Shown here: positions 1,132 to 54,012 of the stretch, piece after piece
Layout of the letters: each line of letters starts with the position of its first letter
Numbering within the stretch: position 1 is the stretch's first letter
NCBI RefSeq assembly: GCF_900116515.1
Contig: NZ_FPBA01000012.1
Span: forward strand, 1 to 64,000
Length of the DNA: 64,000 nt
Source of the DNA: Geodermatophilus amargosae
GTDB lineage: Bacteria; Actinomycetota; Actinomycetes; Mycobacteriales; Geodermatophilaceae
Reading direction: 5' to 3'
Position numbers and translations under genes: made by a program
The notes under the pieces: model-generated
Database searches by the model: none
Seen by the model: only the letters and a program-made list of their open reading frames with translations
What the model was told of the DNA's origin: nothing

Positions 1132-1695
1132 GGGACTCGTCCTCCGGAGTTGGCGGGATCAGGATCCCGGCGTTCTCGCCCACCTCGCGCCGGTGGCGCA
1201 GGTCACTCCTGCCGCGGTGAGCGTGACAGCCCTCCACCTGTCCGGTCAATAGTTCCTCATGACCAATTGCTGCCGGAGGTGGCCCTCAAGAGCGGCGAGC
1301 GCCCCGCCGGCCGGCTGTGCCTGCGGCGCCGTGAAGTGCTCGATGCCCCACCTCGCGGGACGTCCGAGGCCGGATCCTCGTGACTCGAGTCGCTCCCTAC
1401 GCGCTACGGCGGGTTGCCGCGAACTCCGGGGTCGTGCGACTCACCCAGCCGGCGCATCATCCGAGGGATCGCGCGGTCCGCCACCGGTGCCGTGACAGGC
1501 GGCACGTGCCGGACCACCTCGGCAGTCGCATGGTCACCCGGGGCCGAGGAGGCCGGGACGTGCGCTGCGGCGTCTTCCACCGCCTGCACCGTGAGCCCGA
1601 AGGGCTCGACCGCACACGCGGCTCACAGCAGGCGGTCCTCCACGACGCATCAGGGTCAGCGGCGGTGAGGACTCTGGCCGCCGGCGTGCCTGAGG
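1132..1695. other. non-coding stretch upstream of the permease
   Basis: About 560 bases with no ORF that I can match to a family. It carries the operator-like site at 1245-1266. The remainder may be decayed coding sequence but nothing recognisable remains. Confidence 0.5.
1245..1266. promoter_or_regulatory. operator-like palindrome, site 1
   Basis: GTCAATAGTTCCTCAT followed by GACCAA, one member of the window-wide TCCTCATGAGGA family. It lies about 115 bases upstream of the permease start. Its first 16 bases are identical to the site at 13800 in front of the ABC substrate-binding protein. Confidence 0.6.
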
Positions 1696-1711
1696 GTTCA
1701 TGATGAGGAAC
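1696..1711. promoter_or_regulatory. operator-like site 2, touching a start codon
   Basis: GTTCATGATGAGGAAC immediately precedes the ATG at 1712. The TGATGAGGAAC half matches the shared operator family. It also supplies the only purine-rich ribosome-binding candidate, so the mRNA may be leaderless or nearly so. Confidence 0.4.
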
Positions 1712-2254
1712 ATGGCTGATGACTCGACACCTCTGACGGCGGTAGAACTCGGTCAGCTGCGTGCGCTCCTCGAGCGCGACGCGATCCGCCGGGTGGTCGA
1801 GGGCTACGCCCGCGGCATGGATCGTTGCGAGGAGTCGAACGCGCGTGCGGCGTACTGGGACGACGGGCACGACAACCACGGCCTGTTCGACGGCAACGCC
1901 CAGGAGTTCGTGACCTGGGGTCTCGCCGCCGCCAAGGAGTACTCCGGCCAGCAGCACGTGCTCGGGCAGTCCACCATCGCCGTCGACGGCGATCGGGCAT
2001 CCGCGGAGACCTACTTCGTGCACTACGCCGAGCACGGGCGCGCGCCTTCCCCGAACGTCGTCACCGCGCTCGCGGGCCGCTACCTCGACCATCTCGAACG
2101 ACGCGGTGGCGAGTGGAAGATCGCCGACCGGGTCGTCGTCATCGACTGGAGCACCGTGTGGCGCTCGGAGGAGCGCTTCCCCGGGGTGGACGCCTTCGTC
2201 CCAGGTGACTGGTATCCGGACGACCGGATCTACACGAAGCCGCACTCCCTGTAA
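1712..2254 (+). CDS. SnoaL-like / NTF2-fold protein
   Basis: A 180-residue single-domain protein of the SnoaL_4 (NTF2-like cone) type. Such proteins act as small cyclases, isomerases, dehydratases or ring hydroxylase-like folds, so the exact reaction cannot be read from sequence. The start of the fold is typical: a helix with AIRRVVEGYARGMDR, then aromatic and acidic residues (YWDDGHDNHG), and C-terminal strands ending near DWSTVWRSEER. I prefer the ATG at 1712; in-frame ATGs at 1700 and 1703 add only four or three residues. A second SnoaL-like gene is at 11806. It stands alone on the plus strand with an operator-like element at its start and a hairpin 30 bases after its stop. Confidence 0.75.
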   Translation: MADDSTPLTAVELGQLRALLERDAIRRVVEGYARGMDRCEESNARAAYWDDGHDNHGLFDGNAQEFVTWGLAAAKEYSGQQHVLGQSTIAVDGDRASAETYFVHYAEHGRAPSPNVVTALAGRYLDHLERRGGEWKIADRVVVIDWSTVWRSEERFPGVDAFVPGDWYPDDRIYTKPHSL

Positions 2255-2284
2255 CCGGGGATCGGGTCGGATCAGGATTGGCTA

Positions 2285-2319
2285 CCTCGGACGCCGCGCA
2301 CGGTGTGCGACGTCCGAGG
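2285..2319 (+). terminator. hairpin after the SnoaL-like gene
   Basis: CCTCGGACG pairs with CGTCCGAGG, and the stem continues inward past one mismatch. It begins 31 bases after the stop codon. There is no T-run, as is common for actinomycete terminators. Confidence 0.5.
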
Positions 2320-2613
2320 TGCGCCGCATCCACTCCACCGGGGAACGCGGCCAGCGGGTTCCAGCCAGGACATGTGCATCAGATGTCGCATGGCGACCTG
2401 CTCGGGCGCCCTTGATGAGCGTGGGGCAGCCGAGACCCCTGGCGCGGGCAATGATCCTGTGATGACCTGCTGCCCGAGCGACACTGCCGAGGCACCAGAC
2501 GCCGGCCGGACCAGTCATCGCGGCGTCGAGACCAGCAGTTGCAGATGAGCGCGCATCCTCAGACCCAGGCAGCGCTCGGCCCGACACCTCACGGCACAAC
2601 GGTAGGAGCTGAC

Positions 2614-3789
2614 ATGGACGTCGACACGGCTTTCGACGACAAGCGCTTTCGCGAAGTGCTCGGCCACCTGCCCACAGGCGTGGTGGTCATCACGGCGATC
2701 ACGCCGGAGGGGAAGCCCTCCGGGATGGTCGTGGGCTCGTTCACGTCGGTCTCCCTGGACCCTCCGCTGGTCGCGTTCCTGCCCGCCCGCACCTCCTCGT
2801 CCTTCGCATCACTGCGTAAAGCACACAGCTTCTGCGTCAACATCCTGTCGGCGAAGCAGGAGCCGATCTGCCGTCAGTTCGCTGTCAGTGGCGGTGACAA
2901 GTTCGCCGGCGTCAACTGGTCCCCGGCGCCCTCGGGCGCTCCCGTCATCGACGGAGTGGTCGCCTGGATCGACTGCGAGTTCGAGCGAATCGACGAGGCC
3001 GGTGACCACTACATCGTGCTCGGGCGTGTGACGCACCTGGCTACGGGCGTGCCGACCATCCCCCTGCTCTTCTTCCAAGGCGGATACGGCGGGTTCGCCA
3101 CGACGTCCCTCGTGATGGGCGCGAGCGCCGACATGCTGCACAGCCTGTCGATCGCTGACCGAGCGCGTGCGGAGATCGAGGCCCTGGCTGGTGACGTGGG
3201 TTTCGAGTGCTACGCGCAGGTGCCGAAAGGCGACCAGTTCGTGGTCATCGCCTCGGTCTTTCCGCCCCTGGACGCGGTCCCGCCGTGGCGCATCGGCATG
3301 ACCTTCCCCGTGGTGCCGCCCTGGGGCGAGGTCTTCATGGCATGGGCCCCTCGCGATGAGCAGATCGCGTGGATGAACAGGATCAGGACGCCTGCTGACG
3401 ATCGGCAGCGCATCCTCGACGAGATGGCGACGATCCGGAGCACGGGATGGTCGATGACCGTGTGGCGGTCCATGGCAGACGTCGACCAGATCTCCGGGAT
3501 CATCGCGGAGCACGGACACACTCCCGCGATGGAGCGTCAGGTCGCCCAGCTCATGCGCAGTACCACCTCCGTCGCCGAGGTCAGGTCACAGGAGGACGTC
3601 GGGCGGTTGGACGGTCATCCGACCGGATCGATCGCATCCATCAGTGCACCTGTGATCGGCCCCGACGGTGAGCTGGCGCTGATGGTGAACATCCACAACA
3701 TCCCGGTGACCACACCCAAGCCGGAGGTACAGAGGTGCATCCAGCGCCTCCTCGAGGCGACGGCACGCATCGCCGAGCGCCTCGCCTAG
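2614..3789 (+). CDS. flavin reductase fused to an IclR-like effector domain
   Basis: A 391-residue two-domain protein. Residues about 1-165 form a flavin reductase-like FMN-binding split barrel: FREVLGHLPTGVVVITA, then SFTSVSLDPPLVAFLPA and the FxGVNW motif. This domain reduces FMN/FAD with NAD(P)H for two-component monooxygenases. Residues about 180-390 resemble the ligand-binding (GAF-like) domain of IclR regulators, with GMTFPVVPPWGEVFMAW where IclR proteins have the conserved Gly-Pro helix start, but no DNA-binding HTH is present. I chose ATG 2614 because GGAG lies 6 bases upstream; an ATG at 2545 would add 23 low-complexity residues. A stand-alone flavin reductase for the luciferase-like enzymes is at 26420. 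The fused domain may let a substrate or product tune flavin reduction; that is inference. Confidence 0.8.
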   Translation: MDVDTAFDDKRFREVLGHLPTGVVVITAITPEGKPSGMVVGSFTSVSLDPPLVAFLPARTSSSFASLRKAHSFCVNILSAKQEPICRQFAVSGGDKFAGVNWSPAPSGAPVIDGVVAWIDCEFERIDEAGDHYIVLGRVTHLATGVPTIPLLFFQGGYGGFATTSLVMGASADMLHSLSIADRARAEIEALAGDVGFECYAQVPKGDQFVVIASVFPPLDAVPPWRIGMTFPVVPPWGEVFMAWAPRDEQIAWMNRIRTPADDRQRILDEMATIRSTGWSMTVWRSMADVDQISGIIAEHGHTPAMERQVAQLMRSTTSVAEVRSQEDVGRLDGHPTGSIASISAPVIGPDGELALMVNIHNIPVTTPKPEVQRCIQRLLEATARIAERLA

Positions 3790-4145: not shown

Positions 4146-4964
4146 TCACAGCCAGCCGACCGGGCCCTCGAGCAGGGGGCCCAGTTCGCCGCGGTTGATG
4201 TCGATGACCTGCGAGAGGTGCTCCTGCATAAGCGTCGCGGCGATCTCCGCGTCGCCGTCCACGATGACCTGGGCGAGCTTGAGGTGGTCCTCGACCAGTT
4301 GCCTGTGGAGCTTGCGGACGTCCCCGACGGTGGAGAGGTGGTGGGCGACCAGCTGGCCGTACGCGCGGAAGGTGAGCTGGAAGACCCGGTTGCCGGCCAG
4401 TCCGGACACCGCACCGTGGAAACCCTCGTGACCGGTCACGTAGACGTCGAGATCGACGTGCTCGTCCTCCTCCACGTCACCGGACAGATACGGCTCCATC
4501 ACCTGCTCACGCAGCGCAGCGTCCGGGTTCGAGGCGGCCATGCGGGCCAGCGTCGACTCCGCGAACACCCACGCCTCGAACAACTCGTCATACGTCGCCC
4601 CCGCGAGGTGGAAGAACAACGCCTCCATCCTGCCCAGATTGGCGGAGTCGACGGTGCCGACCACCGGACCACCACCGGGGCCACGACGGATGCTGATCAT
4701 CCCCTGGACCTCCAGGAGCCGCAGCCCCTCCCGCAGGGACTCACGGCTCACGCCGTACTGCTGCAGCATCTGGGCCTCCGAGGGCAGACCGTCCCCGGGC
4801 TGGAGCCCAGCGGCGGAGATGCTGCGCACGACCTCACGAGCCACGACCTCCGCGGCCTTCAGCGGTCGGAGCACCGAACCTCCGGCGGCGATCGGGATGC
4901 CCTTCGCCGGAGTCGCCGACTCCGCGGTCTGCGCATCGGTCTGCTTCTTCCTCGCCACGTGCAC
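4146..4964 (-). CDS. GntR-family (FadR/FCD) regulator, copy 1
   Basis: Transcriptional regulator of 272 residues with a winged-helix N-terminus (LPSEAQMLQQYGVSRESLRE, wing with RRGPGGGPVVG) and an all-helical FCD ligand/metal domain containing HEGFHGAVSGLAGNR and a late EHLSQVI helix. Such regulators usually repress catabolic genes and release on binding an acyl-CoA or organic acid. It is nearly the same protein as the one at 57859; the two genes are in opposite orientation and bracket the cluster. Start: GTG at 4964 (GTG at 4958 is equally possible, with AAGGGTG upstream); alignment with copy 2 rules out the long upstream extension, since similarity begins just after this point. It is the best candidate in the window for binding the repeated palindrome, but this is not shown by sequence. 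Confidence 0.9.
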   Translation of the reverse strand: MHVARKKQTDAQTAESATPAKGIPIAAGGSVLRPLKAAEVVAREVVRSISAAGLQPGDGLPSEAQMLQQYGVSRESLREGLRLLEVQGMISIRRGPGGGPVVGTVDSANLGRMEALFFHLAGATYDELFEAWVFAESTLARMAASNPDAALREQVMEPYLSGDVEEDEHVDLDVYVTGHEGFHGAVSGLAGNRVFQLTFRAYGQLVAHHLSTVGDVRKLHRQLVEDHLKLAQVIVDGDAEIAATLMQEHLSQVIDINRGELGPLLEGPVGWL

Positions 4965-13799: not shown

Positions 13800-13822
13800 G
13801 TCAATAGTTCCTCATAACAAAT
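13800..13822. promoter_or_regulatory. operator-like palindrome, site 3
   Basis: GTCAATAGTTCCTCAT then AACAAAT, about 180 bases upstream of the ABC substrate-binding gene. It is the closest relative of site 1. Confidence 0.6.
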
Positions 13823-14556
13823 TAGGCACCCGTCGAACCCGGCCGTGGAGTGCGCGCGGGAAGACCCTGAACGAGCCGTCCTGCTCTCTCCGCCGGTGTG
13901 CTCCCGCTCGTCCTGGGCCGCATGGCCTGCGACGAAAGCCGTCGGGTGCGCGCGCCTGAGAAGATCCGGGTCGTCAGCGGCCTGCGTTGATGTTCTCGAT
14001 CAGCCGGCCGGACCAGAGGTGGACGCCGGTCCCCATGGTGTCGGCGCCCAGCCCATCGCCGCAGAGCCTGCAGCCGAGCGAGTCCGTCTCCGCCACGCGT
14101 GTGCGCGAGCAGGTCGACCACCGGCCCGGCCGCCTCTGAGCATGCGGCAGACGTGGACGTCGTCGGGCCCGAGGACAGGGCGGACGAGCTCCGCCGCATC
14201 CCATCACTCTCGATCCGCCGGTCGTCGATCGACGGGATCGGCGCCCAGCCCGCCGCTCCACCCCGTTGTCGTGCCGACCGCTTCCACCACGGGAAGGCCG
14301 GCGATGAGCGCGCAGCGGTCCGGCATCCGGGCGGTCACCTGGTCCCACCCGCGGCCATAGGTGGGGTGGGACACCGACCCGGTCCACGCCGACCGAGCCC
14401 GGATCCGGGCGTCGGATCCGCATCGGCCCAGCCGGAGGACGTGAGTGGCTCGGGGATCCACGTCGACGGAGACGTCGACGACCGCTCACCTGCTCGGACT
14501 CGACGACGTCTCCTCCGGCGGCGAGCGGCGGCCGGCCGGCGAGTCCGAATCCGGAC
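13823..14556. other. long stretch without a recognised gene
   Basis: About 730 bases. Minus-strand frames give fragments such as HPTYGRGWDQVTARMPDR (14290s-14380s) and GTGVHLWSGRLIENINAGR ending near 13977 that look protein-like but lie in different frames, so this may be a decayed gene. I could not assign a family. Confidence 0.35.
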
Positions 14557-15375: not shown

Positions 15376-15408
15376 GACACTTCTCCTCTTGATGAATCGG
15401 TCCCGGGC

Positions 15409-18312: not shown

Positions 18313-18753
18313 GAACGCCTACCTTCGCTCTGGGGTGCGGCCGGGTGTCAGGACGACAGCGGGTAGCCGATGACCCGGGTCTCGAAGATGCTCCTCGGAT
18401 CCCGCCGGGCCCGTTGCGGCCGCGACCGTTCCGATCATGAGACGCGGGTCAAATTCATCAGGATGAAACGCTAGGCAGTCGTGGGCCGGGTGTCAATCCA
18501 CGCCGGATCGCCACCTCGAGACGACCGCTTCGTCGACGTGCGCGACGTCGGTGGGGCATCGACGCCGATCCCGCGAGACCGCACCGGGACGACGCCGATC
18601 CGCACGCACACGTCGTGGGCACGGGCCGCGCGGTGCCGCCCGCGGCGCCCCCGCACCGTCGCCGGCCGCGATGCGCCGTGCACGAGACGGTCGGCGGGAC
18701 CTCGTCCCGCATGGGCGCCCTAGACCTCCACCCGGCCGATCCGCTCGGAGAGG
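18313..18753. other. intergenic with operator-like site
   Basis: About 440 bases, no gene recognised. Two palindrome-like elements occur: GATCATGAGACG at 18433 and the better one at 18451. Confidence 0.5.
18451..18470. promoter_or_regulatory. operator-like palindrome, site 4
   Basis: AAATTCATCAGGATGAAACG, a variant with one base less in the centre, upstream of the CoA-transferase operon. Confidence 0.45.
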
Positions 18754-20275: not shown

Positions 20276-20584
20276 TCAGTCCGAGGCGGGGAGCGGTTTG
20301 GCGGACTTGAGCGGCAGCTCGACGCCGTCGAGCGCGAGCGCCCCTGTGCCGGCCTTGACGCAGAGCAGTTCCAGTCCGGTTGCCGGGTCGGCGTAGCGCT
20401 TGCCCAGTGCCGTGCCGCCGGTGGCCCCCTCGTCGATGGTGAGGCCGGGGGTGGGTTGGCTGTCGGCGGGGATCAGGGGGTGCCCGCCGCAGGTGAGGGA
20501 GACCTCGCCGGCGGGTGCGCGGACCACGACCACCTGGGTGTCGTCCACTGCGCTGCGCCAGCGCGATCCGATACGGAGCTGCAT
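20276..20584 (-). CDS. conserved 102-residue protein paired with acyl-CoA ligase, copy 1
   Basis: Unrecognised small soluble protein. It starts MQLRIGSRWRSAVDDTQVVV, has LTCGGHPLIP with a single Cys, and ends LPASD; it contains no membrane segment or known motif that I can name. It is followed after 13 bases by an acyl-CoA synthetase. A second copy at 45347 is almost identical and also precedes an acyl-CoA synthetase. Both have the operator-like palindrome at the same distance (TCATGA 49 bases upstream of the ATG). The association suggests a helper or regulator of the ligase, for example an acyl carrier or inhibitor, but that is a guess. Confidence 0.8.
   Translation of the reverse strand: MQLRIGSRWRSAVDDTQVVVVRAPAGEVSLTCGGHPLIPADSQPTPGLTIDEGATGGTALGKRYADPATGLELLCVKAGTGALALDGVELPLKSAKPLPASD
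20349..20584. repeat. 236-base exact direct repeat (partner 45420-45655)
   Basis: The 5' three quarters of the 102-residue gene is identical at the DNA level, by eye, to 45420-45655, with abrupt divergence on both sides (at the ATG and at codon 79). The repeats are in the same orientation 25 kb apart, so recombination could delete or amplify the interval. The sharp borders suggest recent gene conversion. Confidence 0.85.
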
Positions 20585-20627: not shown

Positions 20628-20648
20628 ATTCATCATGAGGATAACAAG
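20628..20648. promoter_or_regulatory. operator-like palindrome, site 5
   Basis: ATTCATCATGAGGATAACAA. On the minus strand TATCCT within it is a good -10 box with TACCCA 17 bases upstream, so the operator would cover the promoter of the 102-residue protein and ligase genes. Confidence 0.65.
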
Positions 20649-26969: not shown

Positions 26970-27362
26970 GTGAAGATCGGTGAGCTCTCCCACAAGACGG
27001 ACGTCTCGGCGCGGATGCTGCGGTACTACGAGGAGCAGGGGCTCATCACCGTCGAACGGCGGGAGAACGGGTTCCGCGAGTACGACGACTACCTCGTCGA
27101 TCGTGTGCGCAAGATCCGCGAGCTCCTCGACTCCGGCATCCCCACGAGGATCATCGCCGACATCCTGCCCTGCCTGAACCGCGAGCAGCTCCTCGTCACG
27201 GACGCCGATCCGCAGCTGAGAGCTGTCCTGATCGAGCAACGGGACAAGATGGAGCAGCGCATCGCGATCCTCACGCACAACCGGGACGCCCTGAGCCGGT
27301 ACATCGACGCCATGGACGAGGCCACGACCGCCGACCGACCAGGTGCACCGAACGGTCGCTGA
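26970..27362 (+). CDS. MerR-family regulator
   Basis: A 130-residue MerR regulator. KIGELSHKTDVSARMLRYYEEQGL is the canonical winged HTH, followed by a wing (ERRENGFREYDDYLVDRV) and a dimerisation coiled coil with EQRDKMEQRIAILTHNRDALSRYI. A single Cys in DILPCL is conserved in many members of this branch, but there is no metal-binding C-terminal cluster, so an organic ligand is more likely. GTG 26970 is required since the HTH starts at once. Divergent from the flavin reductase operon, it probably controls that promoter. It is the only MerR regulator in the window. Confidence 0.9.
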   Translation: MKIGELSHKTDVSARMLRYYEEQGLITVERRENGFREYDDYLVDRVRKIRELLDSGIPTRIIADILPCLNREQLLVTDADPQLRAVLIEQRDKMEQRIAILTHNRDALSRYIDAMDEATTADRPGAPNGR

Positions 27363-29212: not shown

Positions 29213-29232
29213 GAATAATCTCATGAGAAACC
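29213..29232. promoter_or_regulatory. operator-like palindrome, site 7
   Basis: AATAATCTCATGAGAAACCT between the aldehyde dehydrogenase and the crotonase. TAATCT is a possible plus-strand -10 box inside the site. Confidence 0.55.
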
Positions 29233-29346: not shown

Positions 29347-30297
29347 ATGGCAACCGACACGAACCTCGAGCGCTACAAGAAGTACACCGGGTTGATCGTC
29401 CAGGGGCAGGACCGCGGGGTGGTCCGGGTCGGATTCCGCCCCGGTACGCACCTCGCCCACGAGCAGCACGCGCACATCGGCGAGATCTGGCTCGAGCTCG
29501 ACCGCGACCCCGAGGTCCGCGTCGTCCTGCTCGGCCCCGCACGGGGCGCGGAAGGGTTCGACCAGCCCGGTCGGGACATCTCGACCTACGCCAAGGGCGC
29601 GGTCGACCAGATGTGGCGCATGGCCACGGACTACGCCCTCAATGCCCAGTTGCTCCACGAGGCGCGCGAGATCGTGCACAACATGCTGAACTTCAACAAG
29701 CCGGTCGTGGCGCTCTACCCCGGGTCCTTCCAGCTCACCGTGCCCCTGGCCGACATCTCCATTGCCACCCGTGACTGCACGTTCGCCGACCGCCACACCA
29801 GCTACGGAGGAGCCGCCGGCGACCACGTCGTCGCCGCGTGGCCGCTGCACATGTCGATGGCTAAGGCGAAGTGGCACGCACTGACCGGCGAGCCCATCAC
29901 GGGCGAGGAGGCCGAGCGGATCGGGTTGATCAGCCTGGTCGTCGACGACGAGGAGGAGCTCGAGCGGCGTGGCGAGGAGGTCGCGCAGCGGCTGGCACGC
30001 GGCTCGCAGCGAGCCCTGCAGTGGACGAAGCGGTCGCTGAACTACCACTACAAGCAGCACGCCGCGGCCTTCGACCTCTCCGCCGCCTTCGAGCAGCTCA
30101 CCTTCCTGGGCCCCGACATCCGCGAGGGCACCATCGCGCTGCGAACTCAGCGTGAGCCCGACTTCCCGGAGTACACCCTCCCCGACGGCGCGTTCAGCGC
30201 GCTCGTCCCCCAGGACGACCCGTCGCCGAAGTACACCCACCCCGACGACGCCTACAGCGCGCTCGTCCCCCAGGACGACCCGCCGTCCGCGGGCTAG
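29347..30297 (+). CDS. crotonase family protein resembling 6-oxocamphor hydrolase
   Basis: A 316-residue enoyl-CoA hydratase/isomerase-fold protein. The segment FADRHTSYGGAAGDHVVAAW aligns with the 6-oxocamphor hydrolase region that carries its catalytic His and Asp (the ...GPHF...PGDGAHVVW stretch of that enzyme), and both residues are kept. A Gln stands where that enzyme has another active-site His. The usual crotonase glutamates and CoA-site glycines are not evident. This favours hydrolytic C-C cleavage of a cyclic diketone over hydration of a CoA ester, but it is inference from remembered sequence. The C-terminus carries two 20-residue repeats. ATG 29347 with GGGGGCACC upstream. A dead copy lies at 23300. 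Confidence 0.8.
   Translation: MATDTNLERYKKYTGLIVQGQDRGVVRVGFRPGTHLAHEQHAHIGEIWLELDRDPEVRVVLLGPARGAEGFDQPGRDISTYAKGAVDQMWRMATDYALNAQLLHEAREIVHNMLNFNKPVVALYPGSFQLTVPLADISIATRDCTFADRHTSYGGAAGDHVVAAWPLHMSMAKAKWHALTGEPITGEEAERIGLISLVVDDEEELERRGEEVAQRLARGSQRALQWTKRSLNYHYKQHAAAFDLSAAFEQLTFLGPDIREGTIALRTQREPDFPEYTLPDGAFSALVPQDDPSPKYTHPDDAYSALVPQDDPPSAG
30171..30290 (+). repeat. 60-base tandem repeat at the crotonase C-terminus
   Basis: Two 60-base units encode 20-residue repeats sharing FSALVPQDDP / YSALVPQDDP, with starts YTLPDG and YTHPDD. The C-terminal tail is outside the crotonase fold; it may be a linear interaction motif or a recent slippage duplication. Confidence 0.85.
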
Positions 30298-31546: not shown

Positions 31547-32947
31547 TCAGCGCGCGAAGACCACCCGGCCTCCGACGAGCGTCCCCTGGACGGCGTCGGA
31601 CGTCGGCGCGTGGAGGACGTCGGTCAGCGTGCGATCCAGCACCACCAGGTCAGCGGTGCTGCCGACGCGGACCCGTCGTGGAGCCCCGCCAGGGTTCCCC
31701 GGAGACCCGAGGTAGCCGGCGAGGGCCTGGGCCGGCGTCAAGGTCTCCGCGGCGCCCACGACCGCGCCCGACGCCGTGCGCCGGTGGACGGCGGCGGTCA
31801 TGACGGCCCAGGGGTCCAGCGGGCCGTACGGGGCGTCGCTGGAGAGGGCCAGCGGCACCCCGGCAGCCAGGATGCTCGCGCACCGGTAGAGGTCGGCGTG
31901 GTCGATGGCGGGCACGTCGCGGAGGTAGTCGTCGCCGCGGGCGGAGAGGAACCCGGGCTGCGTCACCACCCGCAGTCCCGTTGCCGCTAGCTCGTCCAAC
32001 AGCTCTACCGGGACGAGCGCTGCGTGCTCGACCCGGTCACCCAGACGCACGCCGGTGATGCCCAGGGCCACGAGCAGCAGGACCAGGGCCTCCCGGGTGA
32101 CGCAGTGCACGGCCACCGATCGGCCGGCGTCGTGCGCGGCGCGGATCCGGTCGACGAGGTCGCCCAGGGACGGCAGCCCGGAGTCGGCGAGGACGATCTT
32201 GTACGGCCCGGCGACCAGGCCCGGGAGCACCTCCCGTCGGCCGAGCGGAACGCCGAGGACCTCGACTCGCGGAGGCAGCACCCCGCGGGCGACGGCGTCG
32301 GCGATCGCAGAAAGGGCTGCGTCGTCCAGGTCCGGGGTGGCGTCGGTGACCGAGGTGATGCCCAGTCGGGCCAACCGGGCGCCGACGGCGGCCAGGTCCG
32401 GCGGAGCGGAGCGAGGGAGCCTGCTCCTCAGCCAGTCGTCGGCCCGCCACAGTCGCCCGGTCGGGACACCGCGACCGTCGCGCTCGACGCCCGGGTGGAC
32501 GGCGGCGACGAGGCCGAGGATCTCGGCGCCGCGGCTGTTGACCGTCCACAGCGCACCGCTGCGCTGCTGGACGCGTACGGGCCGCGCGCCGTGCAGGCGG
32601 TCGAGCGCGGCGGCATCGAGATCGCCGGCGACCGATTCGACGTAGCCGATGCCGCGGACCCATCCCCCGGCGGCCGGAGCCGCGGCCAGCGCGGTGGCCA
32701 GCTGCTCCGGGTCGGTGACCGCCGGCGGTCCGCAGGCGACCGACCGGTCGGCCGCGGCGAGGGCGTGCAGGTGCAGGTGGGCATCGTGCAGCCCGGGCAG
32801 CAGCGCGCCCCCGGCTGCGTCCAGGACCTCCTCGCCGGGCAGCTCGCGCAGGCCCGCACCGACCTCCGTCACCCGTCCGGCGCCGATGCGGACGGCGGCC
32901 CCCCGGACGCCGTCGACCTCCGCGTCGTGCACCAGCAGGCCGCTCAC
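31547..32947 (-). CDS. amidohydrolase 3 family metal-dependent hydrolase
   Basis: A 466-residue amidohydrolase superfamily protein (YtcJ/AmiD-like). PGLHDAHLHLHALA is the N-terminal metal motif HxH; VAVHCVTREAL and GDRVEHAAL supply the later histidines; LSSDAPYGPLDPWAVM holds the terminal metal Asp. Substrate unknown; family members hydrolyse cyclic or N-acyl amides. GTG 32947 overlaps the stop of the CoA-transferase by four bases (GTGA), so the two are co-translated. It ends in a beta-sandwich segment (GSTADLVVLDRTLTDVL). Confidence 0.85.
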   Translation of the reverse strand: MSGLLVHDAEVDGVRGAAVRIGAGRVTEVGAGLRELPGEEVLDAAGGALLPGLHDAHLHLHALAAADRSVACGPPAVTDPEQLATALAAAPAAGGWVRGIGYVESVAGDLDAAALDRLHGARPVRVQQRSGALWTVNSRGAEILGLVAAVHPGVERDGRGVPTGRLWRADDWLRSRLPRSAPPDLAAVGARLARLGITSVTDATPDLDDAALSAIADAVARGVLPPRVEVLGVPLGRREVLPGLVAGPYKIVLADSGLPSLGDLVDRIRAAHDAGRSVAVHCVTREALVLLLVALGITGVRLGDRVEHAALVPVELLDELAATGLRVVTQPGFLSARGDDYLRDVPAIDHADLYRCASILAAGVPLALSSDAPYGPLDPWAVMTAAVHRRTASGAVVGAAETLTPAQALAGYLGSPGNPGGAPRRVRVGSTADLVVLDRTLTDVLHAPTSDAVQGTLVGGRVVFAR

Positions 32948-34197
32948 GGCATCGGGATCCCGAGCTCGCGCAGGACCTCCCGGGTGTGGGCCCCCGGCGC
33001 CGCGACCTCCCCTGCAGGGGGCTCGCGCCGGCGAGGAGCAGCCACCGGCAGCGGGCCGCCCGGCGTGTCGACGACCCAGCTCCCGGCGCGGCGCCGAGCC
33101 GTGAGGGACGGGCTCGGCGGGCCCTCGGGCAGGGTCGCACCGACCACGTCGGCCATCGCGACGTCCCACAACACCCCGGAGCCGTCCCCGGGAGCCGACA
33201 TCGCCAGGACGGCCGCGGTCAGCCCGGTGAGCGGGTCGGCGATCGCGTCCCCGACGAACACCGGCGTCCCCTCCGCCGTCCAGGCCACCAGACCCGCCCC
33301 GGCGGCGACGTCGTCCCCGAATCCCACGCGGCCGGATCCGCGCCCCCCGGCCGTGATCGAGATCCAGGTCGTCCCCTCCGCGACCGCCGCAGCGGCGTCG
33401 AGCCCGAACCCCGCCAGCGCCCGGGGGCGGGAGCCCTCGATGACGACGTCGGCTGCGTCGACCAGCGCGGCCATCGCCGTCCGCCCGCCGGCCGTGGCCG
33501 GGTCGAGCACGACGGAACGGTGCCCGGCGTGCAGCAGCCGGTAGAACCCCGGATCGCCCCGCCGCGCGCCGTCCAGCCGGTGCGGGGTCTCCACCTTCAC
33601 CACCCGGGCGCCGGCCGCGCCGAGCAGCGAGGCGCACAACGGGCCGGCCCAGAGCGCGCTGAAGTCGACGACCAGCAGCCCCTCGACCGGGCGGCCGGCC
33701 AACGGGACGGGCGTCGCCGCCGGACGCGGGAGCACCGGAGCGGCAGCGACGCCGAGCAGCTCGGCGCGCTCGGCCAGCTCCGCGCCCGTGTGCACCCCGA
33801 GCCAGGCGGCGACGGCCGGCCACGGGTCCTCGGGTAGGGCCCGTTCGACCAGAGCGCCGAGCAGCAGGGGGTCGTCGGGGCGTGCGCAGGCGACCGCCGC
33901 CCAGCCGTCGGCCGTCGGCAGCAGCCGGCAACTGCCACCGGCCGACACGGTCCCCGCCCGCCGGTGCCCGGTCAGCGCGGCCCGGTCGGCCAGCACCTGG
34001 GCTCCGTCCACGTGCACCGGCGCGCGGGTGCCGGCGGTAACCGCGGTGATCCGCGCCCCGAGCTCGCGGGCGACCGTCGCGGCTCGGCCCGGCGGCACGA
34101 GGGGTGGCCCGTCCGGCCTCCCGGTCAGCGCGACGACCCCGCTCGAGGCCCAGTCCACGACCGGCGACGGCTCCGTCGGAACCGGCGATCCGGGCAT
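32944..34197 (-). CDS. CoA-transferase family III protein with displaced domain order
   Basis: A 417-residue CaiB-type protein. The sequence that normally opens such enzymes (VEGLLVVDFSALWAGPLCASLLGAAGARVVKVE) begins only around residue 190. It is preceded by a segment resembling a CaiB linker/second-domain region (ASSGVVALTGRPDGPPLVPPG, ACARPDDPLLLGALVE). After the Rossmann half come SRPRALAGFGLDAA and GFGDDVAAGAGLVAW, whose Asp may be the catalytic one. The layout looks permuted compared with the CoA-transferase at 17107, though a subfamily with this order may be known. Its ATG is only 25 bases from the ATG of the divergent crotonase. Confidence 0.75.
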   Translation of the reverse strand: MPGSPVPTEPSPVVDWASSGVVALTGRPDGPPLVPPGRAATVARELGARITAVTAGTRAPVHVDGAQVLADRAALTGHRRAGTVSAGGSCRLLPTADGWAAVACARPDDPLLLGALVERALPEDPWPAVAAWLGVHTGAELAERAELLGVAAAPVLPRPAATPVPLAGRPVEGLLVVDFSALWAGPLCASLLGAAGARVVKVETPHRLDGARRGDPGFYRLLHAGHRSVVLDPATAGGRTAMAALVDAADVVIEGSRPRALAGFGLDAAAAVAEGTTWISITAGGRGSGRVGFGDDVAAGAGLVAWTAEGTPVFVGDAIADPLTGLTAAVLAMSAPGDGSGVLWDVAMADVVGATLPEGPPSPSLTARRRAGSWVVDTPGGPLPVAAPRRREPPAGEVAAPGAHTREVLRELGIPMP

Positions 34198-34222
34198 GTC
34201 GCGACGATACGGTGACCGGGTC
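34198..34222. promoter_or_regulatory. 25-base divergent promoter gap, probably leaderless both ways
   Basis: Only 25 bases separate two divergent ATG codons. GATACG (plus) and TATCGT (minus) overlap in the middle as possible -10 boxes. No ribosome-binding site fits either start, so both transcripts are likely leaderless and the two -35 regions must lie inside the opposite genes. Confidence 0.45.
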
Positions 34223-35323
34223 ATGACCAGCCGCCCACGATCACCGTCCGAGCCCGGAGCCGGCTTGCTCCTGGTGGCCCCGGCCGCGCTCGCCGCCCAG
34301 GGCACCGCGCCGCTGCTGGCGGAGGACGGACGGATCGAGCAGCCGCTGCTGGTGGTGGACCTCGACGGTGAACCGGAGGACGTCGGGGCGGCCGCGGCGG
34401 CCGCCACCGCGAGTGACCGGGTGCTCGTCGGCATCAGCCGTGGACGCGCGCCCGACCCCGGCTGGGAGCCGCTCGTGCGGGCGCTGGACCTGACGTTGGT
34501 CCCGTCCGGGAGCGACCGCGGCATCCGCGAGGTGGTGACGGTCCCCGATCCGGCGGCGGCCGCGCTGGCCCTGTCGGCCACCGCGCGGGCCCACCCGCAT
34601 GCGAGTGTCGTCCTCGCAGGGCTGCTCCGCTGGGGCGGGGAGCTCGACGTGCCGGCGGCACTCGACGCCGAGTCCCTCGCCTACTCGGCCTTGCTCGGCG
34701 GCCCGGAGTTCGCCGCCTGGCTGGCCCGCCGAGGCCCGCGGCCGCTGCCACCCCCGGCGCGCGAAGACCCGGTACGCGTCCGGCGGGACGGCGACGAGCT
34801 CCGGCTGACGCTGAACCGGCCCGAGCGCCGCAACGCCTACGGACGCGAGCTGCGCGACGCACTGGTGTCGGCCCTGCACCTGGTGGCCTGGGACGAGCGC
34901 ATCGTCCGAGTGGTGCTCGACGGCACCGGGCCGTCCTTCTGCTCCGGCGGCGACCTCGACGAGTTCGGCACCGCGCCGGACCCGGTCACCGGCCACCTGG
35001 TGCGCACCCGTGCCGGGGCCGCCCTTCCGCTGCACCGTGTGGCCGACCGGGTCGAGGTGTGGCTGCACGGCGCGTGCGTCGGAGCGGGCATCGAACTTCC
35101 GGCCTACGCGCACCGGATCGTCGCCGCGCCGGACACCCGGATCCGCCTTCCGGAGATCGGCATGGGCCTGATCCCCGGGGCCGGCGGCACCGTGAGCATC
35201 CCGCGCAGGATCGGCCGGTGGCGGACCCTCTACCTGGCGCTCAGCGACGCCGTCATCGACGCGCAGACGGCCCTGTCGTGGGGGCTCGTCGACTCGGTCG
35301 CCGGTCACCAGCCCACCGTCTGA
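34223..35323 (+). CDS. enoyl-CoA hydratase/isomerase family protein with N-terminal extension
   Basis: A 366-residue protein. The crotonase domain starts only at about residue 180 (LRLTLNRPERRNAYGRELRDAL), then has SFCSGGDLDEFG for the oxyanion hole, VWLHGACVGAGIELPAYAH as the second CoA/oxyanion segment, and RLPEIGMGLIPGAGGTVSIPRRIGR with the Glu expected of hydratases. The first 180 residues are Ala/Leu-rich, contain no membrane helix and match nothing I know; they may be a degenerate crotonase-like or CoA-binding half. Divergent from the CoA-transferase at 32944. Confidence 0.82.
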   Translation: MTSRPRSPSEPGAGLLLVAPAALAAQGTAPLLAEDGRIEQPLLVVDLDGEPEDVGAAAAAATASDRVLVGISRGRAPDPGWEPLVRALDLTLVPSGSDRGIREVVTVPDPAAAALALSATARAHPHASVVLAGLLRWGGELDVPAALDAESLAYSALLGGPEFAAWLARRGPRPLPPPAREDPVRVRRDGDELRLTLNRPERRNAYGRELRDALVSALHLVAWDERIVRVVLDGTGPSFCSGGDLDEFGTAPDPVTGHLVRTRAGAALPLHRVADRVEVWLHGACVGAGIELPAYAHRIVAAPDTRIRLPEIGMGLIPGAGGTVSIPRRIGRWRTLYLALSDAVIDAQTALSWGLVDSVAGHQPTV

Positions 35324-43459: not shown

Positions 43460-45063
43460 GCCGACCTCAGCTCGCGCCTGAGCACCTTCCCAGTGGCGTT
43501 GCGTGGCAGCTGCTCGAGGAACCGGACGCTGCGCGGGACCTTGAAGCGAGCCAGTCGCTCACGCACGAAGAGCTGTACCGCGTCCTCGTCCAGCGCCGTC
43601 CCCGGCTTCGTCACCACGAACGCGCACAGCGCCTGACCGAAGCGCGGGTCGGGCACGCCGACGACGGCCACCTCGGCGATCCCCGGATGCTCGGCGAGCA
43701 GCTCCTCGACCTCCTGCGGATACACGTTCTCGCCGCCCGAGACGATCATGTCGTCCTCGCGTCCTTCGACGAAGAGCAGCTCACCCTCGACGTGCCCGAT
43801 GTCCCCCGAGGCGAGCAGTCCACGCTGCTCCTCCTTGGCGCCGCCGCTCGTGTACCCGTCGAACCGCATCGAGCTGCCGACGAAGATCCGGCCGGTGTCG
43901 CCGGCCGCAACAGGCCGACCCTGGCCGTCGAGGATCTCGACGGATGCGCCGAGCACACGGCGACCGGCCGTTCCGGGGTGCGAGCGCAGCTCGGCGGGCG
44001 TGGCGATGGTCGCGAGCGCGACCTCGGTGGAGCCGTACACGTTGTAGAGCACCGCACCGAACCGGTTCAGGGTCTCCGTCGCGAGAGCGGGCCCGAGTGC
44101 GGAGCCGCTCGCTGCGATCACCCTGAGCCGGGTCGTGTCGGACGCCAGCAGGGCGGACGGACCCAGCGCCAGGATCCGCTGGAGCATGACCGGCACGACC
44201 ACGAGGACGTGCGCGCGGTGGCCGCAGACGGATCGGAGCGTCTCCCTCGGGTCGAAGTGGCGACTCAGCACGGTGGTGGACGCGCGGGCCAGGCCCAGCA
44301 GCAGGTTGGTGAGCCCCCAACTGTGGAAGAGCGGAGCGGCGACGACCTGGGTGTCGCGTGGCCGGTACGGGATGCGGCTCAGCAGCCCCGCCAGGCCCTC
44401 GACGGATTCGGCTGCGGAGCTGCGTGCGGCACCCCGGGGGCGTCCTGTCGTCCCCGAGGTGAGCACGATGAGGCGTCCCTGCCTGCGCGGCGCGAGGAAT
44501 CCCTGTCGGAGCGCCATGGCCGCCTGTGCCGCTTCTCCGAACGTGCGCCGGGCGCCGCAGCCGACGACCACGCCCTCGAACTCGTCCCCGTGCAGCAGGA
44601 AGTCGACGCCTTCGGCGGCCACGACGTCAGCGAGCTGGGGAGCGGCGAACTCCGTGTTGAGGAAGACGAGATCAGCGCCGGTGCGGGCAACGGCGACGAG
44701 AGCCAGGACGTACTCCCGGGAGTTGCGGGCGAGGATCCCGACGCGTGTCCCAGGGGCCACGCCCTCGTCCACGAGTCCCCGAGCCAGGTGACCGGCGCGC
44801 CGCCACAGCTCGCCGTACGTCAGAGCGCCGTAGGGGTCGACGACAGCGTGGGCCCACGGATACCGCGCCGCAGAGGAAGCGACCGCGCCGACGATCCCCC
44901 GGCCCCACACCCCCACCGCGCCGAGCGCCAGGGGTACGCGGTGGGGCTGTCGCAGATCGATGTTCGCGCGCGTCAGGATTGCGTCTGCGCGTAACCGCGA
45001 CCGGATCGAGACCCTCGGTCGCCCTGCGGGATCGTCGTCCCGACCGCCTTCGACGATGGTCAT
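43456..45063 (-). CDS. acyl-CoA synthetase (AMP-forming ligase) 2
   Basis: A 535-residue adenylate-forming ligase of the long/medium-chain type. IVLTSGTTGRPRGAARSS is the ATP loop, LYNVYGSTEVALATIA the second motif, and GREDDMIVSGGENVYPQEVEELL the hinge; RNATGKVLRRELR carries the catalytic lysine. It probably supplies acyl- or hydroxyacyl-CoA for the synthase downstream. ATG 45063 overlaps the stop of the FolE-like fragment (ATGA). It is fully diverged from the ligase at 18754 although both have the same 102-residue upstream partner. Confidence 0.92.
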   Translation of the reverse strand: MTIVEGGRDDDPAGRPRVSIRSRLRADAILTRANIDLRQPHRVPLALGAVGVWGRGIVGAVASSAARYPWAHAVVDPYGALTYGELWRRAGHLARGLVDEGVAPGTRVGILARNSREYVLALVAVARTGADLVFLNTEFAAPQLADVVAAEGVDFLLHGDEFEGVVVGCGARRTFGEAAQAAMALRQGFLAPRRQGRLIVLTSGTTGRPRGAARSSAAESVEGLAGLLSRIPYRPRDTQVVAAPLFHSWGLTNLLLGLARASTTVLSRHFDPRETLRSVCGHRAHVLVVVPVMLQRILALGPSALLASDTTRLRVIAASGSALGPALATETLNRFGAVLYNVYGSTEVALATIATPAELRSHPGTAGRRVLGASVEILDGQGRPVAAGDTGRIFVGSSMRFDGYTSGGAKEEQRGLLASGDIGHVEGELLFVEGREDDMIVSGGENVYPQEVEELLAEHPGIAEVAVVGVPDPRFGQALCAFVVTKPGTALDEDAVQLFVRERLARFKVPRSVRFLEQLPRNATGKVLRRELRSA

Positions 45064-45329
45064 CGTCGGACCTCCCTGGCCGGAATGTCCTCCACCAGGA
45101 ACATCTCGTCGTGGTCCTCGTCGAACGTCGTGGAGAGGACGTCCCGCGGGTCCTGCCGCAGGCCGGCGAACGTCTCGACAGATGCCTGGGCAAGCCGCGC
45201 CGGTGTCTCCTGTTGCCCGGGCCGGTCGCGGTCCTCCCCCACCGCGACCAACAGCCGGCGGATCGCGGCGGCGGCTCGGGCGGCAGCGACGTCACCAGCC
45301 ACGACGCCTGACCTCCCCGTGTCCTCCAT
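45060..45329 (-). CDS. GTP cyclohydrolase I N-terminal domain fragment
   Basis: An 89-residue protein whose residues about 18-85 match the N-terminal helical part of FolE (AAAIRRLLVAVGEDRDRPGQ, ETPARLAQASVETFAGL, TTFDEDHDEMFLVEDIP). It stops exactly where FolE would continue with the catalytic CEHHLLPF segment, so zinc ligands and active site are missing and it cannot make dihydroneopterin. Frame, ribosome-binding site (AGGAG five bases before ATG 45329) and ATGA coupling to the ligase are all intact, which argues for use as a stand-alone helical domain rather than plain debris. Function unknown. Confidence 0.75.
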   Translation of the reverse strand: MEDTGRSGVVAGDVAAARAAAAIRRLLVAVGEDRDRPGQQETPARLAQASVETFAGLRQDPRDVLSTTFDEDHDEMFLVEDIPAREVRR

Positions 45330-45346: not shown

Positions 45347-45655
45347 TCAGTCCGATGCGGGGAGGGGCTTGGCGGACCGGAGGGGTAGTTCGACGCCGTC
45401 GAGCGCGAGCGCCCCTGTCCCGGCCTTGACGCAGAGCAGTTCCAGTCCGGTTGCCGGGTCGGCGTAGCGCTTGCCCAGTGCCGTGCCGCCGGTGGCCCCC
45501 TCGTCGATGGTGAGGCCGGGGGTGGGTTGGCTGTCGGCGGGGATCAGGGGGTGCCCGCCGCAGGTGAGGGAGACCTCGCCGGCGGGTGCGCGGACCACGA
45601 CCACCTGGGTGTCGTCCACTGCGCTGCGCCAGCGCGATCCGATACGGAGCTGCAT
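45347..45655 (-). CDS. conserved 102-residue protein paired with acyl-CoA ligase, copy 2
   Basis: Almost identical to the product of 20276-20584: only one residue differs (Arg for Lys, near the C-terminus, in ELPLRSAKPLPASD). First gene of the polyester operon, 17 bases ahead of the FolE-like fragment. The 236 bases 45420-45655 match copy 1 exactly, while the 3' end shows many silent changes. The protein is therefore under selection, and part of the gene has been homogenised. Unknown function, probably tied to the ligase. Confidence 0.8.
   Translation of the reverse strand: MQLRIGSRWRSAVDDTQVVVVRAPAGEVSLTCGGHPLIPADSQPTPGLTIDEGATGGTALGKRYADPATGLELLCVKAGTGALALDGVELPLRSAKPLPASD
45420..45655. 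repeat. 236-base exact direct repeat (partner 20349-20584)
   Basis: Second copy of the identical segment; same orientation, 25 kb from the first. Confidence 0.85.
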
Positions 45656-46905: not shown

Positions 46906-46956
46906 GGTGCCAGCTCCGGCCCCTCCACCATCATGCGGACCACACAACTGGAGTTG

Positions 46957-49695: not shown

Positions 49696-49714
49696 GCCGA
49701 CGGCTTCACGCCCC

Positions 49715-49743: not shown

Positions 49744-49753
49744 GCGTCACGTC

Positions 49754-49771
49754 AGATCCTCATGAGGATCT
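49754..49771. promoter_or_regulatory. operator, perfect 18-base palindrome, site 12
   Basis: AGATCCTCATGAGGATCT reads the same on both strands. It is the most symmetric member of the family and sits just after the likely KorAB promoter. Confidence 0.75.
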
Positions 49772-52895: not shown

Positions 52896-52930
52896 GGGAC
52901 CACTGACGCGAGAGAGCGGAGGGACCGGAC

Positions 52931-53164
52931 GTGTGCGAGCAGGGTTCCGTTCCTGCGGATGTGTTCCGGTGGCTCTGTCGGGAGCTGGGACACGCGGCGG
53001 ACGAGGTCATGAGCGTCCGCCTCAACCGCGAGCGCGTCGTGCTGCTGAAGGACCCGCCCACGGGGCCGCTGCAGAAGTTCACGTACGAGCCGCTCGGCGG
53101 TCGGCTCACGCTCGTCGACCAGGAACCGGCCGGCGCCCGCGATGACGAAGGTGGGCGGCGATGA
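52931..53164 (+). CDS. small protein between korB and ferredoxin, unknown
   Basis: A 77-residue protein starting MCEQGSVPADVFRWL; includes ERVVLLKDPPTGPLQKFTYEPLGGRLTLVD. No family recognised. GTG 52931 has GGAGGG eight bases upstream. Position inside the KorAB-ferredoxin operon suggests a role in assembly or electron transfer, but no cofactor motif is visible (one Cys at position 2, another near 16). Confidence 0.6.
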   Translation: MCEQGSVPADVFRWLCRELGHAADEVMSVRLNRERVVLLKDPPTGPLQKFTYEPLGGRLTLVDQEPAGARDDEGGRR

Positions 53165-53234
53165 GTGTGCCCCGCCGGCGACGAGGGGCGATGAACTGCT
53201 GCGATTGTCCTGCCCCTCCTCCCTCGGAGCGGTC

Positions 53235-53456
53235 GTGCCCCGGTACCGCTACATCTCCCCCTGGCCGGCGGTCTTCGGTGACCTCGAGGTCGGCCGAAAC
53301 GCCCGTGTCCTCCCCGTCGACGGGCGGGCACTGCCCCCGACCGGATCGACGGTCATCCTCCTCCCGGGAGATGAGATCGAGCTCGAGCAGCCGTCCACCG
53401 ATGCCCGCCTCAGAGAGGTGGCCGGGCCCACGGACGGCGGACAAGAGGTCCACTGA
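53235..53456 (+). CDS. small beta-rich protein, unknown
   Basis: A 73-residue protein starting VPRYRYISPWPAVFGDL, with DGRALPPTGSTVILLPGDEIELEQP, which looks like a small beta barrel. GTG 53235 has GGAG five bases upstream and starts right at the likely fold; an ATG at 53142 in the same frame would add 31 residues that overlap the previous gene. No family assigned; it is in the KorAB-ferredoxin operon. Confidence 0.5.
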   Translation: MPRYRYISPWPAVFGDLEVGRNARVLPVDGRALPPTGSTVILLPGDEIELEQPSTDARLREVAGPTDGGQEVH

Positions 53457-53537
53457 CCGGTCCGGATCCGGTAGTGAGCAGTCCCCCCGGCGCCGCACGC
53501 ACCACGGCGCGGTGCCGCTGTCGAACAAGGAGCCGTC

Positions 53538-53864
53538 ATGACCTACGTCATCGCCGAGCCGTGCGTCGATGTCCTCGACAAGAGGTGCATCGACGAGTGC
53601 CCGGTGGACTGCATCTACGAGGGTGACCGGATGCTGTACATCCATCCGGACGAGTGCGTCGACTGCGGCGCCTGTGAGCCGGTCTGCCCGGTGGAGGCCA
53701 TCTACTACGACACGGACCTCCCGGACCAGTGGAGCGCCTTCCAGGACGCCAACGCCGAATTCTTCTCGGAGCTCGGCACCCCAGGAGGCGCAGCCAAGAC
53801 CGGCCGGATCGGCCGTGATCATCCGATGGTCACCGCTCTCCCACCCCGCAGCGAGAGTCACTGA
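53538..53864 (+). CDS. fdxA: 7Fe ferredoxin
   Basis: A 108-residue actinobacterial-type ferredoxin with [3Fe-4S] and [4Fe-4S] sites. CVDVLDKRCIDECPVDCIYEG gives the first cluster and the partner Cys-Pro of the second; CVDCGACEPVCPVEAIYY completes them. It would accept electrons from KorAB and pass them to an oxygenase, reductase or to NAD via the reductase at 59975. ATG 53538. The C-terminal 40 residues are ordinary for this family. Confidence 0.93.
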   Translation: MTYVIAEPCVDVLDKRCIDECPVDCIYEGDRMLYIHPDECVDCGACEPVCPVEAIYYDTDLPDQWSAFQDANAEFFSELGTPGGAAKTGRIGRDHPMVTALPPRSESH

Positions 53865-53992
53865 TCGGAGACGACGCCGGTCCGGCACGCCGGTGGCCGT
53901 CCTGCGTGTGGCGCGGCCCGGCCTGCACACCTCGTCATGTCGACCAGCGCTTCCTCGAGCGGTCGAGAGCCATCAGTCATGGGTTGCGGACA

Positions 53993-54012
53993 ATAAGTTA
54001 TGAGGAATAGGG
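53993..54012. promoter_or_regulatory. operator-like palindrome, site 13
   Basis: AATAAGTTATGAGGAATAGG (reverse complement CCTATTCCTCATAACTTATT), ending about 8 bases before the RibBA start. It matches site 11 (CTATTCCTCATGACCTTAT) closely. TAAGTT may be the -10 box. Confidence 0.6.

What the first reader, a model, noticed from the sequence alone, without database searches (positions are those of the whole stretch)
1245..54012. About 13 copies of one palindrome suggest a single repressor for the whole island
A TCCTCATGAGGA-core palindrome, flanked by AAT/ATT, lies at 1245, 1696, 13800, 18451, 20628, 23155, 29213, 37751, 45697, 46887, 49650, 49754 and 53993. Nearly all are upstream of genes or operons, and none of the good copies lie inside genes. 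In several the likely -10 box (TATCCT, TAATCT) is part of the site, and at 49754 a perfect copy sits just after a good promoter. This looks like a dedicated regulon covering uptake, ligases, SDRs, crotonase, polyester operon, KorAB and RibBA. The motif does not resemble the usual FadR-type sequence I know.
Basis: partly seen in the sequence, partly recalled or inferred. Interest (0 to 1): 0.88.

Follow-up and report, generated by a model that had tools for sequence, protein, structure and literature searches.

The report
One GntR switch for degradation islands
Fourteen copies of one mirror-image DNA sequence in front of genes in this bacterial degradation island are very probably binding sites of the GntR-type switch protein encoded near both ends of the island, and the same protein and sequence occur together in other bacteria too.

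Summary
All 13 sites exist, and leave-one-out scoring ranks each above every non-site position of the window. A weaker 14th lies at 15389. The frozen 18-bp matrix gives no hit of 17 bits in 400 kb sampled from the same genome.

The likely regulator is the FCD-type GntR pair g04/g55. Six homologues of 32-40% identity have none, except one differently shaped palindrome. All 16 motif-linked proteins carry Glu39 and Arg58; those six carry Gly39 and Pro/Ser58.

Sites are phased to promoters: TTGAC begins 15 bases before or 10 after the centre in 12 of 22 eligible occurrences (0 of 20,000 random placements). In the first class the operator fills the promoter spacer, as expected for a repressor. The motif lacks the GT...AC core common in FadR-subfamily operators.

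Binding, effector and substrate are untested. Several island operons have no site, g04/g55 themselves have none, two isolated sites lie elsewhere in the genome, and genome G316 has sites but no close GntR found.

The parts
1251..1268 (.). motif site upstream of g01 (ABC permease, minus strand); TTGAC starts 10 nt after the centre
   Evidence: 25.8 bits, LOO 25.2
1695..1712 (.). motif site at the called start of g02 (SnoaL-like); overlaps a possible ribosome-binding site
   Evidence: 20.7 bits, LOO 17.9
13806..13823 (.). motif site upstream of g12 (substrate-binding protein, minus strand); TTGAC starts 10 nt after the centre
   Evidence: 24.8 bits, LOO 23.6
15381..15398 (.). 14th, weaker candidate upstream of g14 (SDR, minus strand); its GAGGAG half may be a ribosome-binding site
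   Evidence: 13.95 bits when not in the matrix, 17.9 when included
18452..18469 (.). motif site directly after a TTGACA-17-TAGCGT promoter-like pair, upstream of g17 (CoA-transferase, minus strand)
   Evidence: 22.7 bits
20627..20644 (.). motif site upstream of g19-g18 (102-aa protein, acyl-CoA ligase; minus strand); TATCCT overlaps the site
   Evidence: 25.8 bits
23157..23174 (.). weakest of the 13 sites, upstream of g21 (minus strand)
   Evidence: 17.8 bits, LOO 15.6
29215..29232 (.). motif site between divergent g26 (aldehyde dehydrogenase) and g27 (crotonase-like)
   Evidence: 21.1 bits
37751..37768 (.). motif site upstream of g34 (SDR, minus strand)
   Evidence: 25.0 bits
45698..45715 (.). 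motif site with perfect core upstream of the g43-g36 run (102-aa protein, GTP cyclohydrolase I fragment, ligase, hydrolases, PhaC-like; minus strand)
   Evidence: 29.5 bits
46888..46905 (.). motif site upstream of g45 (SDR)
   Evidence: 20.8 bits
49649..49666 (.). motif site between g46 (MFS) and g47 (KorA-like); a TAGGCT -10-like word facing g46 abuts it
   Evidence: 22.5 bits
49754..49771 (.). motif site with perfect core downstream of a TTGACT-17-TAGCGT promoter-like pair, upstream of g47-g48 (KorAB-like)
   Evidence: 25.8 bits
53992..54009 (.). motif site upstream of g52 (RibBA-like); overlaps a TAGGGT -10-like word
   Evidence: 21.7 bits
4146..4958 (-). g04, GntR-FCD regulator copy 1 (270 aa), proposed to bind the sites
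   Evidence: Pfam GntR + FCD; E39/R58
57859..58698 (+). g55, GntR-FCD regulator copy 2 (279 aa), 92% identical to copy 1

Best explanation
The palindromes are operators of a FadR-subfamily (FCD) GntR regulator present as two near-identical copies, g04 and g55, near the two ends of the island. A dimer is proposed to bind ATTCMTCA|TGAKGAAT through a recognition helix with S-R-E-S-L-R-E and a wing with I-R-R-G. At many promoters the bound dimer lies between the -35 and -10 boxes, or over the -10/start region, and blocks RNA polymerase. An intermediate of the catabolic pathway, perhaps an acyl-CoA or carboxylate, would bind the FCD domain and release it. Shown here: the sites, their enrichment, their place in front of genes, their association with this GntR clade, the co-segregating residues, and the phasing to -35 boxes. 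Inferred: binding, dimer, repression and inducer.
For: The unchanged window matrix finds 14 sites in 71 kb around the Georgenia homologue, 10 in 42 kb in Streptomyces NWU339 and 6 in the 38.5-kb G143 contig; the fetched flanks of the Georgenia and NWU339 islands have none above 15 bits. It finds 4, 7, 8, 6 and 6 sites of 18 bits or more in 40, 22.6, 40, 40 and 40 kb around the homologues of G459, G593, G404, G520 and G575 (one each of the G593 and G404 sites is inside a gene), 2 in the 13-kb NTH33 locus and 5 of 17 bits or more in each of four 41-kb Rhodococcus plasmid loci. Six homologues of 32-40% identity (19.9 kb each, 40 kb for G490) have 0 in five cases and 1 in the sixth; in the same 19.9-kb span G459, G593, G404, G520 and G575 have 4, 6, 6, 2 and 3. 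All 16 motif-linked GntR proteins have E39/R58, the six others G39 and P/S58. 48 of 49 pooled sites lie outside called genes (first 20 nt not counted as inside) with a gene reading away from them; 29 of 31 in a second set. TTGAC offsets peak at -15 (5) and +10 (7) in 46 oriented sites; 0 of 20,000 random placements reach this. The second set shows -16/-15 five times and +9/+10 three times in 29 sites, one TTGAC counting in both because two sites are 25 nt apart. Of the window's genes with homologues in the Georgenia, NWU339 and G143 islands, the GntR is the only DNA-binding regulator. It is the only regulator type listed in both the R. opacus and the Rhodococcus DMU1 stretch (those gene tables are incomplete).
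Against: No site lies upstream of g04 or g55 in the window (best 0.6 bits). Relatives are mixed: sites lie in front of the GntR gene in NWU339 (one of two copies), NTH33, G143, G520, G575 and three Rhodococcus loci, but not in Georgenia, G459, G593, G404 or DMU1. G316 has 4 sites on an 8.3-kb contig, but its best GntR match is only 32% identical; the contig ends 1.4 kb past a site and the genome is a draft of about 190 contigs. Most genomes were chosen because they encode the GntR. The loci are not all independent: NWU339/NTH33 and three Rhodococcus loci are about 96% identical over long stretches. Two isolated sites (C48:4406, C33:4886) lie elsewhere in the genome. The exact-consensus genome scans showed no enrichment. 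No binding data exist. The +10 class is not simply explained by occlusion.
Confidence: 0.86

Rival explanations
1. The same GntR binds the sites but is a dual regulator: repressor at spacer and -10 sites, activator at sites just upstream of a -35 box (TTGAC 10 nt after the centre), such as the two uptake promoters at 1259 and 13814.
For: 7 of 46 oriented sites have TTGAC at exactly +10 on the gene-facing strand and 3 of 29 in the second set at +9/+10. Several of these promoters lack a good -10 box (judged by eye).
Against: A repressor can also act at that position; few promoters; no expression data.
Confidence: 0.3
2. Another regulator, encoded elsewhere, binds the sites; the GntR is linked only because it travels with the same pathway.
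For: G316 has sites but no close GntR found. Choosing genomes by a pathway CoA-transferase instead of the GntR gives 5 of 394 genomes, and all 5 have motif sites beside it. Not all genes of the relatives' islands were annotated.
Against: Four of those 5 genomes also have the GntR. The window shares the GntR at 78-79% with Georgenia but has no close copy of that CoA-transferase and still has the motif. E39/R58 segregates with the motif in 22 of 22 proteins compared.
Confidence: 0.09
3. The MerR-type regulator g25 (26970-27362) binds in the promoter spacers and activates by untwisting, as MerR proteins do.
For: Spacer placement of some sites.
Against: g25 has no homologue at E <= 1e-15 in the Georgenia, NWU339, NTH33 or G143 stretches; spacers of the -15 class are 16-17 bp, not the 19-20 bp of MerR promoters (recalled); no site lies at its own promoter.
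Confidence: 0.02
4. The sites are chance AT-rich matches or copies of a repeated element.
For: The bare 12-mer is barely enriched. Exact consensus scans of 298 and 394 genomes give 6 and 15 genomes with one hit each, no more than the reversed control (by my count 10 and 18 genomes).
Against: 0 of 399,660 background positions reach 17 bits; clusters in other genomes; the only long direct repeat near sites, 300 nt, ends before the sites at 20635 and 45706.
Confidence: 0.01

Closest known systems
FadR (FCD) subfamily of GntR regulators, consensus operators as in PMC4494728 (sections 5 and 10 read)
   Same: HTH PF00392 plus FCD PF07729; palindromic operators; Arg38, Arg42, Glu43 and Gly59 kept (numbering of the paper's table 1 applied by eye)
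   Different: The common consensus has TKGT/ACMA boxes with 3 (sometimes 2) nt between GT and AC; here the boxes read TCMT and AKGA, 4 nt apart, with no GT...AC. Arg28, which prefers the G of the box, is Ala here
LutR of Bacillus subtilis, operator TCATC-N1-GATGA (PMC11734750, passages read)
   Same: GntR-family repressor with TCATC/GATGA half-sites; operator downstream of its promoters. PDB chain 8pqm, which I recall to be the LutR DNA-binding domain, also lacks Arg28
   Different: Centre N1 in LutR, AT here; similarity seen only in the DNA-binding domain (8pqm E 1.9e-5); lactate utilisation
LldR of Corynebacterium glutamicum (PDB 2di3)
   Same: Best solved-structure match (E 6e-16, residues 42-261 of 279); three C-terminal His aligned
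   Different: NCBIfam LldR model scores 67.6 against a cut-off of 311; PMC4494728 lists LldR with the usual 3-nt GT-AC operators

Membership tests
GntR, FadR/FCD subfamily | N-terminal GntR winged helix-turn-helix | tested here: met
   PF00392 45.4 and 45.8 bits, cut-off 27
GntR, FadR/FCD subfamily | C-terminal FCD domain | tested here: met
   PF07729 49.2 and 44.9 bits, cut-off 24.3
GntR, FadR/FCD subfamily | common, not universal, operator TKGT/ACMA | tested here: not met
   Position frequencies of 44 sites (14 window, 30 relatives) show TTCMTCA|TGAKGAA. PMC4494728 lists exceptions such as NanR and BioR, so this does not exclude membership
LutR | operator TCATC-N1-GATGA | tested here: not met
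   similar half-site, two conserved central bases instead of one
NanR / LldR / PdhR models | NCBIfam curated cut-off | tested here: not met
   NanR 79.7 of 260, LldR 67.6 of 311, PdhR 47.3 of 330 bits for g55
Dedicated regulon of a local regulator | same motif in front of several operons, found with the regulator in other genomes | tested here: met
   exception G316
Dedicated regulon of a local regulator | site in front of the regulator's own gene | tested here: inconclusive
   Absent in the window; present in some relatives, absent in others
Transcriptional repressor | DNA binding, and derepression on deletion | not testable with these tools
   needs gel shift and deletion

The most novel reading that the evidence does not exclude
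Probability: 0.3. Interest if true: 0.65.

Novelty: new variant of a known kind. Interest (0 to 1): 0.52.

Why it matters
It gives a regulator-operator pair with a testable specificity rule (Glu39/Arg58 against Gly39/Pro58). It outlines a catabolic regulon from sequence alone, so unknown genes such as the 102-aa protein can be assigned to it and the substrate sought by induction. Seven literature searches of the held library listed no paper that by title and abstract treats this motif or GntR clade; 20 papers contain one of six motif strings, with unrelated titles (listing only). The library lacks most subscription journals.

Tried and rejected
The sequence-only covariance model R1 was too weak for a genome scan: 6 rows, 3 places, at E <= 10. 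Exact consensus TTCMTCATGAKGAA over 298 and 394 genomes has no power: the window's genome, G143, G459, G520 and G593 have no exact copy; 2 of the 15 class hits (G404, G575) are the GntR-adjacent sites. MerR, another regulator and chance are weighed under rivals.

Rows dropped: the NTH33 sites (duplicates of NWU339) and C22:70086 (no gene reads away from it) from the phasing count of 46; two sites inside genes (G593, G404) from the second count of 29. The partial 36% homologue L021 (Asn39, Arg58; no site of 12 bits or more in 3.3 kb) is not among the six motif-free homologues. Weaker GntR matches (the 32% and lower ones) were not examined. L020, L043, L044, L045 and L046 are the same genes as C17, G295, G085, G193 and G027 and were counted once. 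The G295 region has hits of 20.0, 17.3 and 15.4 bits, the G193 region 16.9 and 15.3, the G027 region 15.1; the 20.0 and 16.9 hits belong to another palindrome. Of the 22 non-contig places, 5 were not fetched, and I did not check which lie in genes. G459 has a match to the Georgenia CoA-transferase but was not listed.
Full report
Check of the observation. The 13 palindromes are present where stated. As a bare 12-mer the motif is weak (35 matches with up to 3 mismatches against 24.0 +/- 4.5). With its AT flanks it is strong: in a leave-one-out test with an 18-bp symmetrised matrix, 13 of 13 sites outrank every non-site position of the window. A 14th candidate (centre 15389) was added before the matrix was frozen. 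In 20 x 20 kb of the same genome no position reaches 17 bits and one reaches 15. Apart from 1703, which overlaps a called start, the window sites lie outside called genes. Outside the window, matrix sites of 17 bits or more among the fetched stretches of the genome are C22:70086, C21:74824, C21:80230, C48:4406 and C33:4886; the two C21 sites probably belong to the island, because C21 ends with the window's first 1,058 nt.

Gene content. My own codon-usage gene caller gave 60 genes. Pfam scans of all 60 show an ABC permease and substrate-binding protein, acyl-CoA ligases, CoA-transferases, a thiolase/OB-fold pair, acyl-CoA dehydrogenase, SDRs, crotonases, aldehyde dehydrogenase, luciferase-type monooxygenases, MFS transporters, KorAB-like proteins and RibBA. 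DNA-binding proteins found: two GntR-FCD copies (g04, g55; 92% identical), a MerR (g25) and a 62-aa helix-turn-helix protein (g59) beyond the IS110 element; g03 carries an IclR C-terminal domain only.

Who binds? The one scan of genome contigs, which reaches close relatives only, found the GntR in Streptomyces NWU339 (two copies), Streptomyces NTH33 and Georgenia ruanii. More distant ones came from sampled genomes and Rhodococcus plasmids. The frozen window matrix was run on their surroundings. Georgenia has 14 sites in 71 kb, NWU339 10 in 42 kb, G143 6 in 38.5 kb; fetched flanks of the first two islands have none above 15 bits. G459, G593, G404, G520 and G575 have 4, 7, 8, 6 and 6 of 18 bits or more, two of them inside genes. 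Four Rhodococcus loci have 5 each of 17 bits or more, three of the four being about 96% alike over long stretches. Six homologues of 32-40% identity (C17 of the window's genome, G085, G027, G490, G295, G193) have 0, 0, 0, 0, 1 and 0 of 18 bits or more, although G520 (42%) and G575 (43%) are hardly closer and do have the motif. Numbered as in table 1 of PMC4494728, position 39 is Glu and position 58 Arg in all 16 motif-linked proteins, and Gly and Pro or Ser in those six. By that table both positions contact DNA in FadR and AraR. I placed g55 on the numbering by eye.

A test not selected by GntR. Searching 394 class members with the Georgenia CoA-transferase gave 5 genomes: the GntR-bearing G404, G520, G575 and G593, and G316. 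G316 has 4 sites on its 8.3-kb contig but no GntR better than 32%. Its genus-mate G459 has similar sites with the GntR about 8.5 kb away, so an assembly gap is possible; the case stays open. A second G593 locus has 1 site in 20 kb. So motif, GntR and pathway gene go together and are not fully separable here; the window, which has GntR and motif but no close copy of that CoA-transferase, points to the GntR.

Promoter geometry. Of 49 pooled sites, 48 have a gene reading away from them. In the 46 oriented sites used, TTGAC occurs 25 times within 80 nt, 7 times at +10 and 5 times at -15. Of the 22 occurrences outside the motif 12 are at these two offsets, which none of 20,000 uniform random placements reached. 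In the second set of 29 sites TTGAC falls at -16/-15 five times and at +9/+10 three times, one TTGAC serving two neighbouring sites. With TTGAC at -15 and TAnnnT near +7/+8 the operator fills a 16-17-bp spacer (Georgenia 76766 and 80590, NWU339 59328, 73091 and 76550): repressor geometry. In the window itself this exact arrangement is not seen with TTGAC; its sites follow or overlap -10-like words (18460, 20635, 45706, 49657, 49762, 54000) or precede a TTGAC (1259, 13814). The +10 class could repress or activate.

Comparison. FadR-subfamily operators share TKGT/ACMA boxes with 2-3 nt between GT and AC (PMC4494728, sections 5 and 10 read). Here the boxes read TCMT/AKGA with four nucleotides between them, and Arg28, which prefers the G of the box, is Ala. 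LutR of B. subtilis binds TCATC-N1-GATGA (PMC11734750, passages read): similar half-sites, one central base less. No NCBIfam model reaches its cut-off. The protein is a FadR-subfamily member by domains with an atypical operator.

Function. Rhodococcus records annotate the shared cluster as mycofactocin-coupled SDR, ferredoxin, P450, ester cyclase, SDRs, acyl-CoA dehydrogenases, two CoA-transferases, lipid-transfer protein with OB-fold partner, phosphotransferase, a hypothetical protein and an AMP-binding ligase. Breakdown of an alicyclic or terpenoid compound through CoA thioesters is my inference. The window shares only part of that core, so its island may serve another substrate under the same switch.

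Verdict. The regulon and its GntR are well supported, repression is likely, and the rest is testable.

Noticed in passing
20276-20584 and 45347-45655: Two copies of a 102-aa protein differing in one residue, with no Pfam match; relatives stand between the phosphotransferase and AMP-ligase genes in the Georgenia, NWU339 and G143 islands, and a hypothetical protein of about 100 aa does so in R. opacus.
   Followed up: partly
4146-4946 and 57898-58698: The two GntR genes form an 801-nt inverted repeat, 93% identical, 53 kb apart; recombination between them could invert the island.
   Followed up: no
61924-63999: IS110-family transposase, a 62-aa helix-turn-helix protein, and at the window's edge the start of a TrwC-type relaxase (sub-threshold Pfam match), followed on the contig by a 1,763-aa reading frame: a sign of a mobile element beside the island.
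   Followed up: no
30166-30285: 60-nt unit repeated in tandem near the 3' end of crotonase-like g27.
   Followed up: no
45060-45329: 89-aa reading frame matching positions 2-67 of 179 of GTP cyclohydrolase I; looks like a fragment.
   Followed up: no
2614-3789: Flavin reductase domain fused to an IclR C-terminal domain, with no DNA-binding domain recognised.
   Followed up: no
L110 14570 and L112 5130: Near the Gly39/Pro58 sister GntR proteins of G295 and G193 lies another palindrome, TAAACATGATNATGTTTA-like, possibly the operator of a sister clade.
   Followed up: no
1-1058: Identical over 1,058 nt to the end of contig C21 of the same genome, so the island probably continues there, with sites about 8 and 13 kb upstream of the window.
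   Followed up: partly
31547-35323: Cassette of Amidohydro_3, CoA-transferase and crotonase shared with Georgenia, NWU339 and G575 and, by annotation, next to the GntR in R. opacus; it has sites in Georgenia and NWU339 but not in the window.
   Followed up: partly
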